Shown one piece after another: positions 34,329-39,247 of a stretch of 43,545 nt of DNA (positions within the stretch are counted from its first letter, which is position 1; every line of letters begins with the position of its first letter). Source of the stretch: Clostridium sp. (GTDB lineage: Bacteria > Bacillota > Clostridia > Clostridiales > Clostridiaceae). Where the stretch lies: contig JALEZF010000112.1 of the NCBI GenBank assembly GCA_022773025.1, positions 1-43,545 of the forward strand. Reading direction: 5' to 3'. A program made the translations under genes and the position numbers. Below the pieces are notes generated by a model that was given only the letters and a program-made list of their open reading frames with translations, was not told the origin of the DNA and did not search any database.

Positions 34329-35077
34329 TATCCCTCCTTTTTTAATCTGCTAATAATATAAATCTGCCCCTTGCCGGTAACCCTTGATGTCTTGTAAGTG
34401 AATTTGCCTTTAGAACTCTCCCTGACTCCCTCAGTGACCTCAATTAGACCTTGTTCTATTGCTCTTTGTGTTGCTTCACATGAGTTCTTAAATATTAATC
34501 CCCACTCTCTTAATTTTCCATATAGTCTCTTCTCCCCAATTTTTATACCATTTTTAGAAGCGAGCTTAGCTACTTCTCGAACAAGCATTGAATTATTGGC
34601 GGCAGCAACATGTTCTGCAAATGATACCTTTGGAGCATTAAACATCTTTTCCTTTTCAAGTGCTTTTCTTTGCTCTTTCTCATTTTTAAGTTCGACTGCA
34701 AGTTTTATAAGAAAATCAGGATTAGTAATTGCCTCCTCTAATGTGCTTTCTGTCATGTATGTCCCATGCTTTCTTATGCTTGGCAGTACTTCACTAGTTA
34801 CCCAACGTTTAAACTTCTTTGCTCCTGGAAGTTTGCTTGAAAGAATAAGGCTGTAAAGACCAGACTCATTAATGAGAATTCCCTTTGTCCCGTTGACGGT
34901 GAACGATTCGTTCAGCGTTTTGTCTTCCTCATCGATATGGTCTCTGATAGCCTTCTGAGGATTTGTGTACCCAAGGATTTCAGCTACATCTTTCCCTACT
35001 AGCCATCCTTCACCATCAATTTCTACAGCTCTTATCTCTCCAAATTGCTCATTCTTAAAAATCTGAATTTCTTTCAT
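34328..35077 (-). CDS. Antirepressor, Bro-N plus KilAC
   Basis: 249 residues. Residues 1-110 are a Bro-N domain (FGEIRAVEIDGEGWLVGKDV, EILGYTNPQKAIRDHIDEED, ESGLYSLILSSKLPGAKKFK, RWVTSEVLPSIRKHG). A coiled linker leads to a KilAC/ANT domain (about 140-249: MLVREVAKLASKNGIKIGEK, RLYGKLREWGLI, TYKTSRVTGKGQIYI). Such proteins inactivate the phage repressor at induction. It is the second antirepressor of this prophage, downstream of the Xis-like gene. Confidence 0.92.
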   Translation of the reverse strand: MKEIQIFKNEQFGEIRAVEIDGEGWLVGKDVAEILGYTNPQKAIRDHIDEEDKTLNESFTVNGTKGILINESGLYSLILSSKLPGAKKFKRWVTSEVLPSIRKHGTYMTESTLEEAITNPDFLIKLAVELKNEKEQRKALEKEKMFNAPKVSFAEHVAAANNSMLVREVAKLASKNGIKIGEKRLYGKLREWGLIFKNSCEATQRAIEQGLIEVTEGVRESSKGKFTYKTSRVTGKGQIYIISRLKKEG

Positions 35078-35087
35078 ACTATCCCTC

Positions 35088-35333
35088 CTATATAACCCTT
35101 CTTTGTTCTGTTATCCTGTTAAGCCATTCCATAAACATTCCCCTATTAATAAGAGTCTTAGTTCCAACCTTGAAGAATGGGAAATCGGAATTACGCATTT
35201 TAGTTAATGCTATTATCTTGTCCTTTCCTATTCCACTGAACTTAGCACATTCATCAATAGTCATAGTCACTTTTTCAGGCTTGTTTAATGACTTCAATAT
35301 ATCTTCTAAACAAGCTAAAATTTCTTTATCCAC
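35088..35333 (-). CDS. Excisionase-like helix-turn-helix protein
   Basis: An 81-residue winged-helix protein. TIDECAKFSGIGKDKIIALT and FPFFKVGTKTLINRGMFMEW are the Tn916-Xis-like (excisionase) pattern: a recognition helix followed by the wing. It would assist the integrase in excision by binding beside attachment sites. It lies in the early operon rather than next to int, common in Firmicutes phages. Confidence 0.82.
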   Translation of the reverse strand: MDKEILACLEDILKSLNKPEKVTMTIDECAKFSGIGKDKIIALTKMRNSDFPFFKVGTKTLINRGMFMEWLNRITEQRRVI

Positions 35334-35347
35334 TTAAGCCTCCCCCC

Positions 35348-35560
35348 TTAACCTGTAATATTTAAATCTTTGAATATTTCATCCGTAGTACATTGATAAG
35401 TATCTGCAAGTCTTTTAATCAACTGCGCTGATGGACTAGTCCATCCCTGCTCTAACTTATAGAAAGTACTCTTACTTATCTTTAGCTTATCTAGCAAAGG
35501 CTTAGTTATTTCTTCATAACCTGCATTCACTCTTCTCATCTTAATTGGTGTTATTTTCAC
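35348..35560 (-). CDS. Cro-like HTH regulator (XRE family), GTG start
   Basis: A 70-residue protein with an XRE-type HTH (VNAGYEEITKPLLDKLKISK, STFYKLEQGWTSPSAQLIKR, LADTYQCTTDEIF). GTG start at 35558-35560, with AGGAG 10 bp upstream. Likely a Cro-type switch regulator binding the operators near 36.95 kb or its own upstream region. It is separated from the repressor by the antirepressor block, an uncommon order. Confidence 0.82.
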   Translation of the reverse strand: MKITPIKMRRVNAGYEEITKPLLDKLKISKSTFYKLEQGWTSPSAQLIKRLADTYQCTTDEIFKDLNITG

Positions 35561-35633
35561 TGTTTATCATCTCCTTTTATTGCTATATTGTTACTTTTAA
35601 TGATAAAATTGTCCTTGAAAGGTGGTTAATATT

Positions 35634-35873
35634 ATGAAACGTATTTATGCTTGCTTAACAGGTAATTGGGTTAACTTATGTGATGATCCAAACTGTAAAG
35701 TTGGTTCTAACTCTCAATCTCCTACAATGTGGTGGGAAGAGAATGCAGAAATTTGGAGTCCTCTAAATAAAGAACAAGAACATACAATGTACCAACAAGA
35801 CTATGTTTATATTCACTATTTAGGTAAGGACTATCGCATACACCCAATATTTATTCAAGTAGTAGATTCTTAG
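35634..35873 (+). CDS. Rightward small protein, possible moron
   Basis: ATG at 35634-35636 follows GAAAGGTGG. The 79-residue protein (MKRIYACLTGNWVNLCDDPN, with SPTMWWEENAEIW and a YIHYLGKDYRIHPIFIQ end) is Trp/Tyr-rich and matches no family I know. A promoter-like TTGCTA-18-TAAAAT lies at 35582-35611. It is divergent to the Cro-like gene and convergent to the next, so it can be transcribed in the lysogen. A conversion function is a guess. Confidence 0.65.
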   Translation: MKRIYACLTGNWVNLCDDPNCKVGSNSQSPTMWWEENAEIWSPLNKEQEHTMYQQDYVYIHYLGKDYRIHPIFIQVVDS

Positions 35874-35937
35874 TATCCTCTTTTTAGATACGCATCTACT
35901 ACGGACAAGTCGTCAATTTTTAAGTTGGCGGCTTGTC
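35859..35937 (+). other. Two strong RNA hairpins at a convergent gene end
   Basis: GTAGTAGAT (35859-35867) pairs with ATCTACTAC (35894-35902), with an inner GTATC/GATAC stem. Next, 35904-35916 pairs with 35925-35937 over 13 bp including two G-U pairs that would be A-C mismatches on the other strand, so the second hairpin is formed by the rightward transcript. Probably a 3' end or termination structure for the rightward gene, although no T tract follows. Confidence 0.5.
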
Positions 35938-36061
35938 TGCTAAAATACATATCTATTCCACCTTTTATATAGTTCCATTCTGTACTATCAAGTCCAACTA
36001 ACTCATTTTTAATTCTTTCAATTTTCTTTTCTGTAAGAGTTTTAAAAACTTTTTTCTCCAT
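35870..36061 (-). CDS. Small early protein, unknown
   Basis: A 63-residue helical protein (KTLTEKKIERIKNELVGLDS, EWNYIKGGIDMYFSRQAANL). The stop overlaps the stop of the rightward gene by 4 bp. Good ribosome site (GGAAAGAGAGG). No known family; small helical proteins at this place are common in clostridial phages. Confidence 0.6.
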   Translation of the reverse strand: MEKKVFKTLTEKKIERIKNELVGLDSTEWNYIKGGIDMYFSRQAANLKIDDLSVVDAYLKRGY

Positions 36062-36112
36062 CTAATATTCCTCTCTTTCCATAACTGGTACTATTCCTTT
36101 TTTATTCTAATT

Positions 36113-36136
36113 TTGTTTTGTTAGGTGATTTGTTTG
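36113..36136. repeat. 24-bp direct repeat, copy A (3' of antirepressor)
   Basis: Identical over 24 bp to 36896-36919. It begins with TTGTTTTGTTAGG and ends GTGATTTGTTTG. It lies 3 bp after the antirepressor stop codon in the leftward direction. Confidence 0.9.
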
Positions 36137-36139
36137 GCT

Positions 36140-36862
36140 TTATTCTCTTTCTATTAATGGAAATATCCCTTGTTGCTTTAGCAGGTCATAAATGAACAAT
36201 CTTCCTTTTTGAGTCCAATATGTATGTAACCTACTCCCTTGACTTCCATCACTTTTGCTATAATTTTGAGTTTTAGAGAATGTGTAGCCTTTGTCCTGAT
36301 ATTTAGCATAAAGCAACCATTGTTCGCCTAACTTATATTGAACTCCTAATTCATGTAATTTCTTATTTAACGTCGGTGCCCCCATTCCATAGTCCTTAGC
36401 TATTACTGATATAGCTAATAATGAACTGTTTTGAAGTATCAAATCATAATAAGTTGCTTTTGGTTCTAGCTCTCCTATTCTTTGCTTTTGCTGTGCATTT
36501 TCTAGTTGTAGATTTTCAACCTTCTTGCTTGCAATTTCTAAGGCTCTCTTCATAATCATTTCAGGACTATTCCATGCCTTTTCAACCTGTATGAAATATT
36601 TACGTGCCTGTCTACCTTTTGAGTTGTTTTGAACCATTGAAAGTTCTTTAGCCATATCAATTCTTAAAGCATAGTCTTGTAGTTCTTGTTTTGCTTGGGT
36701 GTGAAAAAATTTACACCCCACAAAATCTTCTCCATCAATGAATCCGTACTTTTCAACTTTCTTATCAAACCATTGCTGAAATCTCTCTGTTACTTCCAGA
36801 AATTCATGAAGCTCTCTAGCACTTACTAATCCGTCATTGTTAATCTTGATTAAATCGTTCAT
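36140..36862 (-). CDS. Antirepressor, AntA plus KilAC
   Basis: 240 residues. The N-terminus is an AntA/AntB domain (NNDGLVSARELHEFLEVTER, FQQWFDKKVEKYGFIDGEDF, DMAKELSMVQNNSKGRQARK, YFIQVEKAWNSPE; about 1-95). A coiled segment (ENLQLENAQQKQRIGELEPK) leads to KilAC (about 140-240: SVIAKDYGMGAPTLNKKLHE, LGVQYKLGEQWLLY, YWTQKGRLFIYDLL). It is the first gene of the leftward early operon and would counter the CI-like repressor. The gene is exactly framed by 24-bp direct repeats. AGGAG lies 5 bp before ATG. Confidence 0.92.
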   Translation of the reverse strand: MNDLIKINNDGLVSARELHEFLEVTERFQQWFDKKVEKYGFIDGEDFVGCKFFHTQAKQELQDYALRIDMAKELSMVQNNSKGRQARKYFIQVEKAWNSPEMIMKRALEIASKKVENLQLENAQQKQRIGELEPKATYYDLILQNSSLLAISVIAKDYGMGAPTLNKKLHELGVQYKLGEQWLLYAKYQDKGYTFSKTQNYSKSDGSQGSRLHTYWTQKGRLFIYDLLKQQGIFPLIERE

Positions 36863-36895
36863 CCTATATCTCCTTTCTATAAATTTGAGATTGAA

Positions 36896-36919
36896 TTGTT
36901 TTGTTAGGTGATTTGTTTG
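36896..36919. repeat. 24-bp direct repeat, copy B (leader of antirepressor)
   Basis: Identical to copy A. It lies in the 5' leader of the leftward transcript, about 45 nt after its start. A 27-bp window around it (36886-36912) also matches the repressor start region (37082-37108) at 22 positions without gaps. Confidence 0.9.
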
Positions 36920-36945
36920 TCTTGGTATGTCTTAATAATATCAGT

Positions 36946-36991
36946 AATACCGATATAAGTAAAATTATATTATACCACTAATATCGGTATT
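36946..36991. promoter_or_regulatory. Operator pair between divergent promoters
   Basis: AATACCGATAT (36946-36956) and its exact inverse ATATCGGTATT (36981-36991) flank the leftward promoter's -10 box; the second lies within its spacer. Related TATCAGTAA elements occur at 36939 and 37055, the latter inside the repressor promoter. These are likely CI/Cro binding sites. Confidence 0.72.
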
Positions 36992-36997
36992 ATTGAA
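36969..36997 (-). promoter_or_regulatory. Leftward early promoter
   Basis: On the minus strand TTCAAT (36992-36997), a 17-bp spacer ending TGG, and TATAAT (36969-36974) form an extended -10 promoter. Its spacer contains one operator arm, so repressor binding should shut off the antirepressor and the early genes. Confidence 0.72.
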
Positions 36998-37046
36998 GTT
37001 TATATCGCTAATTCTTTTATTTTCTTTAAAATTCTTTAAATCGCTA

Positions 37047-37074
37047 TTGATTTTATCAGTAACTATGATATTAT
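37047..37074 (+). promoter_or_regulatory. Repressor promoter
   Basis: TTGATT (37047-37052) and TATTAT (37069-37074) with a 16-bp spacer that contains a TATCAGTAA element. The transcript would start near 37081 with a very short leader that carries GAGGTG 8 bp before the repressor ATG. Confidence 0.6.
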
Positions 37075-37096
37075 TATCATATGAGGTGAATTTGTT

Positions 37097-37531
37097 ATGT
37101 TAGGTGATAAAGTAAAAATACTTAGAAGGTCTTTAAAAATTACACAAAAGGATTTAGCTGCTAGTATCGGAGTTAGTCAATCTACAATTGGTATGATAGA
37201 AGGTAATAATCAAGGTGCTAGTAATGATACATTATTAAAATTAGCTAAAGCCTTAAATACAACCGTGGATTATCTTTTATCCGATGATGATAAAGTAAAG
37301 GACATTATTAATTTTCAAGAATTAAATGAAAAAGATAAAAAGTCAATAACTAAAGATTTAAAAGTTCTTATGGATGAATTTAGAGAAGGTACTGATGGTA
37401 CTGCATATTATAATGGGCAAGAACTTGCAGAAGAAGATTTAGACTTAATTGAAAGCGCTATGAAAATAGCTCTAGAACAAATAAAAATTAAGAACAAGGA
37501 AAAATATACACCAAATAAATATAAAAAATAG
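37097..37531 (+). CDS. CI-like repressor (XRE family)
   Basis: 144 residues. An N-terminal HTH (VKILRRSLKITQKDLAASIG, VSQSTIGMIEGNNQGASNDT, LLKLAKALNTTVDYLL; about 5-62) is followed by an acidic, helical C-terminal part without a LexA-type protease domain. Repressors of this type are inactivated through an ImmA-like protease or an antirepressor; both are encoded here. GAGGTG lies 8 bp before the ATG. The stop is directly followed by the next gene, so the two form one operon. Confidence 0.9.
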   Translation: MLGDKVKILRRSLKITQKDLAASIGVSQSTIGMIEGNNQGASNDTLLKLAKALNTTVDYLLSDDDKVKDIINFQELNEKDKKSITKDLKVLMDEFREGTDGTAYYNGQELAEEDLDLIESAMKIALEQIKIKNKEKYTPNKYKK

Positions 37532-37543
37532 GTGGGGGATAAT

Positions 37544-37972
37544 TTGAATACTTATATTAAAAGGGTGATTAACGAATTAAGGGGTAAGTATAAGACAAAT
37601 GATCCTTTTGAGCTAGCAAATTGCTTAGATGTAATTTTAGTAAGCCAACCTTTGGGCAATATCTATGGAATGTATAAATATATCAGACGAAATAAAGTTA
37701 TTTATTTAAATTCAAATTTAGATGACTACCAAAAGCGTTTTGTTTTAGCTCATGAATTAGGGCATTGTGTACTTCATACAAAATCAACATGCTTTTTTAC
37801 TAGCATAGGTTATATAAATAAGGGGAAAAAAGAACATGAGGCAAATTTATTTGCTGCTGAATTTTTAATATATGATGTAGATCCTGTTATTCTTGAGGGA
37901 TACTCTATTAATCAATTAGCGGCTTATTACGAGGTGCCTAGTGAATTAATAGAGTTAAAAAGACAAATTTAA
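37544..37972 (+). CDS. ImmA/IrrE-type metalloprotease
   Basis: Start taken at TTG 37544 behind AGGTGGGGGAT; an in-frame GTG at 37532 directly after the repressor stop has no ribosome site of its own. The protein of about 142 residues carries the zinc motif HELGH in FVLAHELGHCVLH, and a third ligand probably in EHEANLFAAEFLI. ImmA-type proteases cleave the partner repressor when induced. Cotranscribed with the repressor. Confidence 0.92.
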   Translation: MNTYIKRVINELRGKYKTNDPFELANCLDVILVSQPLGNIYGMYKYIRRNKVIYLNSNLDDYQKRFVLAHELGHCVLHTKSTCFFTSIGYINKGKKEHEANLFAAEFLIYDVDPVILEGYSINQLAAYYEVPSELIELKRQI

Positions 37973-38056
37973 ATTGCTTATATTATAGGTCTTTGACCTT
38001 GATATATATTTTTTAACATTTTAAAGAACATACGTTTGTAAAAGGAGGTTAAGTTT

Positions 38057-39247
38057 GTGGCAGTAAAAACAAATTATACGAAAGGAGATCATAAATATTA
38101 TAGGACAGCATTAGTTATTGGCTACGACTCTAGTGGGAAAAAAATAAAAAAAGAGTTTTACGGAAGAACAAAAAACGATGCTGAGTTGCAAAAGGAGGAA
38201 TATAAAAACGATTTAAAAAATGGAATAAACAAAAATGCTGAAAATGAAACAATGAATGTAGCATTTAAAAACTGGTTAGTTGAAACAATCATGCCAAGCG
38301 GTATAAAGACTAGTACTTTTGAAACTTATGAATCTGTGTATCGATTATATATTAAGGATTCCGAACTTGGTATAAGAAAAGTTAAAGATATTAAAGCTCC
38401 CATGATTCAAGCATTTTTTAATTCTCTTTATAAAAAAGGTAAAAATTATCCTCTTTTAAGTAAAATATATAAGCTTATAAAAAGATTTTTTAATTATGAA
38501 ATTGAAAATGATGCTATATTAAAAAATCCTTGTTTAAGTGTAAAAGTACCTGGTCAAATTTCTTACTTAAAAGAAAAGAACTCTAACGAAATTGATACCT
38601 TTACTCCAGAAGAAAGAGAACAAATATTAGAATATCTTTACAAAACTCATAACAGAATAGCTGGAATAGCTTATTTAGGCTTTTCATTAGGTATGCGTGA
38701 AGGTGAAATTCTAGCTCTGAGTTGGGATGATGTTGACCAAAAAAAGAGAATACTCCATATAAAAAAATCAATTAGATATACGAAAGACTTTGATGAAAAA
38801 GGTAATATAAAAGGCGGTAGCATAAAAATAACAACACCTAAGACCTTAAGTTCTTCTAGAGATATAGAGTATACTAAAAACTTTGATGATATGTGGAAAA
38901 TAGCCAAATCTCAAAATAATAGAGACAAATTAAAAGCTGGTGAAAGTTTTGATAACAAATATAATTTAGTCTTTACAGATTCTATGGGAAATCCATTAAA
39001 TAAAAGATATGTTATTAGACATTGGGAAAACGCTTTAAATGAGCTTGAGATAAGCTATAGACCATTTCATACTACTAGACATACTTTTATAACTCAAATG
39101 GCTATGGATGGCATTCCAGAGCCTATAACCCAGTCTATCGTTGGGCATAAAACCGGTTCTGAAATTACTCGTAAAATTTATACCCACGTCAAAAAAGTAG
39201 ATACTAAAAAGGCACTTCAAAATTATAGGATTACCGTTCCTAAGTAA
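38057..39247 (+). CDS. int: Tyrosine integrase
   Basis: 396 residues, GTG start behind AAAGGAGG. An arm-binding N-terminal domain (about 1-60; KYYRTALVIGYDSSGKKIKK), a SAM-like core-binding domain (about 65-165) and a catalytic domain (175-390) with R214 (LGFSLGMREGEIL), H338-T-T-R341 (PFHTTRHTF), H364 (IVGHKTG) and nucleophile Y375 (RKIYTHV) are all present. Catalyses integration and excision. It lies at the phage end, reading toward the host RNA gene, as usual for integrases beside attL or attR. Confidence 0.95.
   Translation: MAVKTNYTKGDHKYYRTALVIGYDSSGKKIKKEFYGRTKNDAELQKEEYKNDLKNGINKNAENETMNVAFKNWLVETIMPSGIKTSTFETYESVYRLYIKDSELGIRKVKDIKAPMIQAFFNSLYKKGKNYPLLSKIYKLIKRFFNYEIENDAILKNPCLSVKVPGQISYLKEKNSNEIDTFTPEEREQILEYLYKTHNRIAGIAYLGFSLGMREGEILALSWDDVDQKKRILHIKKSIRYTKDFDEKGNIKGGSIKITTPKTLSSSRDIEYTKNFDDMWKIAKSQNNRDKLKAGESFDNKYNLVFTDSMGNPLNKRYVIRHWENALNELEISYRPFHTTRHTFITQMAMDGIPEPITQSIVGHKTGSEITRKIYTHVKKVDTKKALQNYRITVPK

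What the first reader, a model, noticed from the sequence alone, without database searches (positions are those of the whole stretch)
36886..37108. Antirepressor leader encodes a near-complement of the repressor's ribosome site and start codon
The 27-bp stretch 36886-36912 matches 37082-37108 (repressor ribosome site, spacer, ATG and first codons) at 22 of 27 positions without gaps, 16 of 17 in the part around the ATG. The first lies in the leftward transcript's leader, so that RNA carries the reverse complement and could base-pair over the repressor start. Once early transcription begins, this could block repressor translation and lock in induction. It may instead be a relic of duplication in the immunity region.
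Basis: partly seen in the sequence, partly recalled or inferred. Interest (0 to 1): 0.8.

Follow-up and report, generated by a model that had tools for sequence, protein, structure and literature searches.

The report
Leader RNA complementary to phage repressor
The first stretch of this prophage's early lytic transcript looks able to base-pair over the start signal of the repressor's own message, and a similar pairing is predicted in eleven related phage sequences, which suggests, without experimental proof, an RNA switch that shuts off dormancy when the virus wakes.

Summary
The match is real: 22/27 and 16/17; 0 of 2000 shuffles reach it. It is not tied to the antirepressor gene: it lies in the predicted 5' leader of the leftward early operon, and a further copy sits at 36113-36140. 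The leader RNA pairs with the repressor's ribosome site and first codons at -29.0 kcal/mol, best of 86 ORF starts in the window (next -16.7). I gathered relatives by repressor and by a small Cro-like protein. Twelve systems, with mostly diverged operators, have a leader element pairing with their own repressor start; seven tested relatives with the same start codons do not, though the weakest of the twelve overlaps the best of the seven. Leaders fit their own repressor start better than swapped ones by duplex energy (p about 0.003-0.013) but not by ungapped identity (p = 0.19). Best reading: an antisense element in the early leader that blocks repressor translation once lytic transcription starts. 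No experiment supports it yet; a DNA-binding site or an inherited remnant is not excluded. It would be a new variant of phage antisense control (compare OOP, sar, c4); nine paper searches listed none like it.

The parts
36863..36930 (-). 5' leader of the leftward early transcript (predicted start near 36930-36928, to the antirepressor start codon)
   Evidence: Promoter consensus TTTACT-N17-TATTAT at 36963-36935; in an automatic promoter scan the -10 lay 22 nt from the element end in 7 of 12 group-A systems.
36886..36912 (-). Antisense element, copy 1: its RNA pairs with the repressor ribosome site, start codon and codons 2-4
   Evidence: 22/27; predicted duplex -29.0 kcal/mol, 25 pairs covering -15 to +11 of the repressor.
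36100..36140 (-). Antisense element, copy 2, directly after the antirepressor gene and in front of the 63-aa ORF; predicted duplex -24.4 kcal/mol
   Evidence: its flank matches the leader of L024.
37082..37108 (+). Target: repressor ribosome site, spacer, start codon and first codons (about the 5' end of the predicted repressor mRNA)
37097..37531 (+). HTH repressor gene
   Evidence: Pfam HTH_3 9.5e-14; Phage_CI_repr 21.1 bits, just under its cut-off of 22; PHROG transcriptional regulator.
36935..36963 (-). Predicted early leftward promoter, overlapping inverted repeat I3
   Evidence: Consensus only; TTTACT-N17-TAATAT in the same place in L024.
37047..37074 (+). Predicted repressor promoter
   Evidence: Consensus only.
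36941..36996 (.). Inverted repeat I3, taken to be repressor operators (inference)
   Evidence: Arms 36941-36960 and 36977-36996, 90% complementary.
36140..36862 (-). AntA/KilAC antirepressor gene, first gene of the early operon here
   Evidence: Pfam AntA 7e-25, ANT 7.6e-34; PHROG 63 anti-repressor.
35348..35560 (-). Small Cro-like HTH gene, with relatives in all three groups of related loci
   Evidence: Weak Pfam HTH matches, no PHROG match, relatives.

Best explanation
The 5' leader of the early lytic mRNA carries a mostly unstructured, A/C-rich antisense element. When the repressor lets go of the leftward promoter, this leader accumulates and pairs in trans with the 5' end of the repressor mRNA, covering ribosome site, start codon and codons 2-4 (about 25 pairs). 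Repressor translation is blocked and the mRNA may be cut by RNase III, so the prophage cannot rebuild immunity: an RNA-level counterpart of what Cro does to cI transcription in lambda. Shown here: the complementarity, its rank among ORF starts, its position in the predicted leader, and predicted pairing in 12 systems. Inferred: that the RNAs are made as predicted, meet, and that pairing lowers repressor output.
For: Chance match excluded at the locus. The repressor start is the best of 86 ORF starts (mechanical ORFs of 60 aa or more) for the leader in the window; within the fetched loci it ranks first in 11 of 12 group-A systems and second in L030, against 0 of 6 in group B and 0 of 1 in group C (5 to 85 starts compared per group-A locus). 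Number of 500 dinucleotide shuffles of the leader that pair as well: W 0, L024 7, L030 1, L048 17, L066 0, L045 2, L060 1, L069 0, L073 42, L075 20, L076 0; the seven B/C systems 36, 110, 242, 280, 334, 335, 393. L162 came out of an unanchored scan of 95 loci with 0 of 100. Own beats swapped pairing: 54 of 20,000 permutations as good (11 systems); p = 0.0026, 0.0091, 0.0126, 0.0126, 0.0096 in five variants with 8 to 12 systems. The upstream half of the element tested against the ribosome-site half of the target alone reaches p < 0.05 against shuffles in 7 of 12 group-A systems and 0 of 7 B/C systems in each of three windows. Shuffling the 28 nt beside the GTTAGGTGAT core, core kept, never gave as many pairable positions (304 observed, mean 265.2, sd 11.0, 0 of 1000). 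L066 and L045 carry tandem copies; in the predicted duplex one lies on the ribosome site and one on codons 3-4. Opening costs about 4.9 + 4.9 kcal/mol against -29.0 gained.
Against: No RNA or reporter data. The own-versus-swapped advantage is not significant by ungapped identity (p = 0.19), and for the upstream half alone depends on the window (p = 0.116, 0.011, 0.016). Group A and B overlap: L073 (A) has 42 of 500 shuffles as good, L057 (B) 36; L073 falls to -10.3 kcal/mol with trimmed sequences. G-U-tolerant differences exceed intolerant ones 22 to 7, but the ratio is what shuffles give (mean 0.70; 244 of 1000 as high; the plain difference 26 of 1000) and group-B leaders set against group-A targets show a stronger bias (0.91), so this does not separate RNA pairing from a DNA site. 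Ungapped conservation of the element core (0.64) is matched by the TSS-proximal stretch (0.64) that is not needed for pairing, and the half that should pair with the ribosome site is only 0.45, no more than the operator spacer (0.49). Groups B and C do without the element. The 12 systems are related, not independent events, and leader windows were anchored after I had seen the motif. In the unanchored scan the best duplex lay at the element in 6 of the 8 group-A loci with 0 of 100; of the rest, L090 (L075) had 3 and L161 (L048) 10 of 100 at the element, L087 (L073) 10 of 100 elsewhere; 4 other loci also had 0 of 100, two of them group B.
Confidence: 0.57

Rival explanations
1. DNA site: the shared sequence is a binding site for a phage regulator that sits both just downstream of the early promoter and over the repressor start, so the likeness is between two copies of an operator.
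For: Direct repeats on the same strand; spacing from element end to repressor start is 182-184 bp in 10 of 12 group-A systems; the own-versus-swapped result also fits a co-evolving DNA site; the G-U test is uninformative.
Against: Spacing is about the same in group B, which lacks the match (179-185 bp). The Cro-like protein, the likeliest binder, has the same STFYKLE stretch in the 5 group-A and 2 group-B members aligned, yet B lacks the element. The element is not palindromic by eye. Pairing beyond the shared core differs from phage to phage.
Confidence: 0.15
2. Relic: a remnant of duplication or a recombination linker at the edge of the immunity region, inherited by descent, without function.
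For: Copy 2 at 36113-36140 fits insertion of the antirepressor gene between leader copies; the block is shared by mosaic phages; its ribosome-site half is poorly conserved in ungapped alignment (0.45).
Against: Predicted pairing persists in 12 systems; nine of the other eleven repressor N-termini were compared and are 47-64% identical to that of the window; the element core (0.64) is more conserved than the sequence beyond it (0.35); the upstream part pairs better than shuffles.
Confidence: 0.14
3. Reverse direction: the abundant repressor mRNA of the lysogen pairs with leaky early transcripts and destroys or silences them, or both RNAs titrate each other, making the switch sharper.
For: Same pairing; in a lysogen the repressor mRNA would be in excess (inference). 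In the window the element ends 23 nt before the antirepressor start codon and about 10 nt from its ribosome site (coordinates), close enough that pairing might hinder early translation.
Against: The pairing covers the ribosome site and start on the repressor side, but lies beside, not over, those of the early gene.
Confidence: 0.12

Closest known systems
Phage lambda OOP RNA against cII
   Same: Phage antisense RNA that lowers a lysogeny-promoting regulator and favours lysis (passages of PMC12197685).
   Different: OOP is a separate cis-antisense RNA to cII; here the element is part of an mRNA leader, lies about 180 bp from its target and is only partly complementary.
P22 sar RNA and P1/P7 c4 RNA against ant
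   Same: Antisense pairing that blocks translation start of a regulator in a phage with an antirepressor gene (passages of PMC12197685).
   Different: sar and c4 silence the antirepressor; here the predicted target is the repressor. C4 is not among the Rfam matches in the window region or in 10 relatives.
Lambda Cro acting on cI
   Same: Early lytic product that prevents renewed repressor synthesis (recalled, no call).
   Different: Cro is a protein acting on promoter DNA; here an RNA acting on translation is proposed.

Membership tests
C4 antisense RNA (Rfam) | Match to the C4 covariance model | tested here: not met
   Window 35000-39000 gave three matches at E up to 1, all far below their gathering scores and none of them C4 (mir-3327, mir-2012, U4atac); no match at gathering score in L024, L030, L045, L060, L066, L069, L073, L075, L076, L162.
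C4 / sar antisense RNA | Target is the antirepressor's translation start | tested here: not met
   Best pairing of the leader is with the repressor start, -29.0 against -16.7 for the next of 86 ORF starts.
cis-antisense RNA (OOP type) | Transcribed from the opposite strand of its own target, full complementarity | tested here: not met
   Element and target are about 180 bp apart and 22 of 27 positions match.
Trans-acting antisense RNA acting on a ribosome site | Complementarity to ribosome site and start kept across relatives | tested here: met
   12 group-A systems against 7 B/C controls, with one overlap (L073 and L057).
Trans-acting antisense RNA acting on a ribosome site | Pairing lowers target translation in vivo | not testable with these tools
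   Needs reporters or RNA data.

The most novel reading that the evidence does not exclude
A two-way RNA toggle at the core of a phage genetic switch: early-operon leader and repressor mRNA neutralise each other, so the decision is set by which of two divergent transcripts is in excess, with the early leader acting as an 'RNA Cro' that keeps pace with changing repressors and operators across a family of temperate phages.
Probability: 0.25. Interest if true: 0.8.

Novelty: new variant of a known kind. Interest (0 to 1): 0.63.

Why it matters
The lysis-lysogeny antisense RNAs in the review passages I saw act on cII, Q or the antirepressor. One aimed at the immunity repressor itself, carried in the leader of the opposing mRNA, would add an RNA arm to the classic repressor/Cro switch. 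It is compact, predictable from sequence and testable with two plasmids, and would bear on how lysogens of clostridia and their kin commit to induction.

Tried and rejected
Chance: rejected by shuffles and relatives. Antirepressor-specific control: rejected because such leaders precede other first genes. A rightward leader peptide read from the plus strand of the element: considered by eye only; at least L041 (= L066) has a stop in frame. G-U asymmetry as proof of RNA pairing: computed, then found uninformative. Ungapped-identity swap test: not significant. Second target: a small rightward gene beside the Cro-like gene scored second in W and L024 and above the repressor in L030, but against shuffles only L030 stands out (26 of 1000; L024 60, W 268). 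Known RNA families: none at gathering score. The phage and plasmid collections gave only short or distant matches to the region or the Cro-like protein.

Rows dropped: C_L079 was lost to a pattern error, so group B was 6 and group C 1. Of the HTH loci, L046, L051-L054, L058, L059, L064, L065 and L068 showed no such repressor in the stretch, L070 and L074 were too short, L062 has a repressor but was left out, and L047, L056, L063, L071, L072 and L078 repeat systems used under other ids. In one search, of 107 loci 7 were skipped and 5 duplicates dropped; L080 used an internal start of the L024 repressor, so L024 was not properly tested there. One search had minus-strand loci the wrong way round and was redone.

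Full report
What is there. The immunity region has a leftward early operon starting with an AntA/KilAC antirepressor (36140-36862) and, rightward, an HTH repressor (37097-37531), an M78 peptidase (37532-37972) and an integrase (38057-39247). The reported match is exact in position and size (22/27, 16/17) and is not reached in 2000 shuffles. A further copy sits at 36113-36140.

Where it sits. Consensus promoters, no better than chance in number, put the early start of transcription near 36930-36928 and that of the repressor near 37081. The leader RNA then reads ACAUACCAAGACAAACAAAUCACCUAACAAAACAAUUCAAUCUCA and on to the antirepressor ribosome site. The target is about the whole predicted 5' untranslated region of the repressor plus four codons. 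The predicted duplex is -29.0 kcal/mol with 25 pairs from -15 to +11; opening both partners costs about 9.8. Of 86 ORF starts in the window (mechanical ORFs of at least 60 aa) the repressor is first, the next scoring -16.7; copy 2 gives -24.4 with the repressor.

Relatives. The repressor alone finds few close relatives. Searches by repressor start, by the Cro-like HTH protein and by a repressor profile gave the useful set; one search kept the best 80 of 109. Twelve distinct systems, here group A, carry the element: the window (W), L024, L030 (C. cadaveris), L048, L066, L045, L060, L069, L073, L075, L076 and L162, after merging copies under other ids. First leftward ORFs are the Cro-like HTH in 8, AntA/KilAC in W, a 91-aa ORF in L024, a 44-aa ORF in L030 and a 224-aa ORF in L162. 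Operators have diverged (spacer identity 0.49), although some, such as those of L048, L066 and L069, look alike. L066 and L045 have two tandem copies. L031, a second C. cadaveris locus, has the leader of L030 without a repressor. Group B (L049, L050, L067, L055, L057, L077) and group C (L061) have the same first repressor codons and a Cro-like gene but no matching element. Further loci with this kind of repressor and no match are L165, L166, L169, L170, L173 and L184.

Tests. Of 500 dinucleotide shuffles of each leader, group A had 0 to 42 pairing as well (2 or fewer in seven of 11), groups B and C 36 to 393; L073 (42) and L057 (36) overlap. An unanchored scan of 95 loci gave 0 of 100 for twelve loci: six group-A elements, two group-A loci with the best duplex elsewhere, two group-B loci and two unrelated ones. 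Own pairing beats swapped pairing by duplex energy: 54 of 20,000 permutations (11 systems) and p = 0.0026, 0.0091, 0.0126, 0.0126, 0.0096 in five variants. By ungapped identity it does not (p = 0.19). For the upstream half alone p was 0.116, 0.011 and 0.016 in three windows; against shuffles 7 of 12 group-A systems and 0 of 7 controls were below 0.05 in each window. With the core held fixed, the upstream 28 nt give more pairable positions than any of 1000 shuffles (304 against a mean of 265.2). The direction of transitions (22 G-U-tolerant, 7 not) gives a ratio that 244 of 1000 shuffles match, and group-B leaders show a stronger bias, so I do not use it. Within each fetched locus the repressor start ranks first for the leader in 11 of 12 group-A systems (second in L030), in 0 of 6 group-B and 0 of 1 group-C systems.

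Conservation. Ungapped, over 66 pairs of group-A systems, the element core is 0.64 identical, its ribosome-site half 0.45, the sequence beyond it 0.35, the operator spacer 0.49 and the TSS-proximal stretch 0.64. So something besides the pairing constrains the start of the leader; an AAGACAAAC stretch is also seen in two group-B leaders, L049 and L050. The spacing from element end to repressor start is 182-184 bp in 10 of 12 group-A systems (173 in L069, 194 in L075), 179-185 in group B and 174 in L061.

Copy 2. Aligned on the core, copy 2 and the single leader of L024 share a stretch on one side (about TTTTT-ATTCTA-TTTTGTTTTG) that copy 1 lacks, while copy 1 shares the promoter side with L024. 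The simplest reading is that the antirepressor gene entered between two leader copies, or duplicated the leader on entry. That accounts for the extra copy, not for the likeness to the repressor start.

Mechanism. I favour antisense control of repressor translation by the early leader (confidence 0.57). Complementarity, position and presence in relatives are shown; expression, pairing in the cell and effect are inferred. Rivals are a DNA site, an inherited relic, and pairing that acts mainly on the early transcript.

Novelty. OOP (cII), aQ (Q), sar and c4 (ant) and 24B_1 (proposed: ant) are described in the passages of the review PMC12197685 that I saw, which also say that OOP was once believed to act in cI expression; STnc6030 of BTP1 in passages of PMC7067206. 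None of these passages describes pairing at the immunity repressor's start. Nine searches of the open-licence library listed nothing of that kind; two searches listed only 20 of 25 and 10 of 41 papers, I saw listings only for papers other than these two, and most subscription papers are not held. I therefore rate it a new variant of a known kind.

Noticed in passing
window 35634-35873 (+): A small rightward ORF lies inside the leftward early region next to the Cro-like gene. L024 and L030 have a different protein there but a similar promoter and ribosome-site sequence, which in L030 is also a good pairing target of the leader.
   Followed up: partly
L024 5776-6435; L162 repressor: These repressors carry two N-terminal HTH-like stretches in a row, with a second internal LGDK stretch, as if two repressor heads had been fused.
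   Followed up: no
L049 (= L008) leader: Group-B leader with several tandem repeats of a TTAATTACCTGTTTGTC-like unit before the Cro-like gene; function unknown.
   Followed up: no
window 36113-36140 and 36896-36923: 28-bp direct repeats (96%) flank the antirepressor gene, a likely trace of its insertion.
   Followed up: partly
window 36912-36928 and leaders of relatives: A stretch AAGACAAAC right after the predicted early start of transcription recurs in many relatives, including two group-B leaders without the antisense element; its role is open.
   Followed up: no
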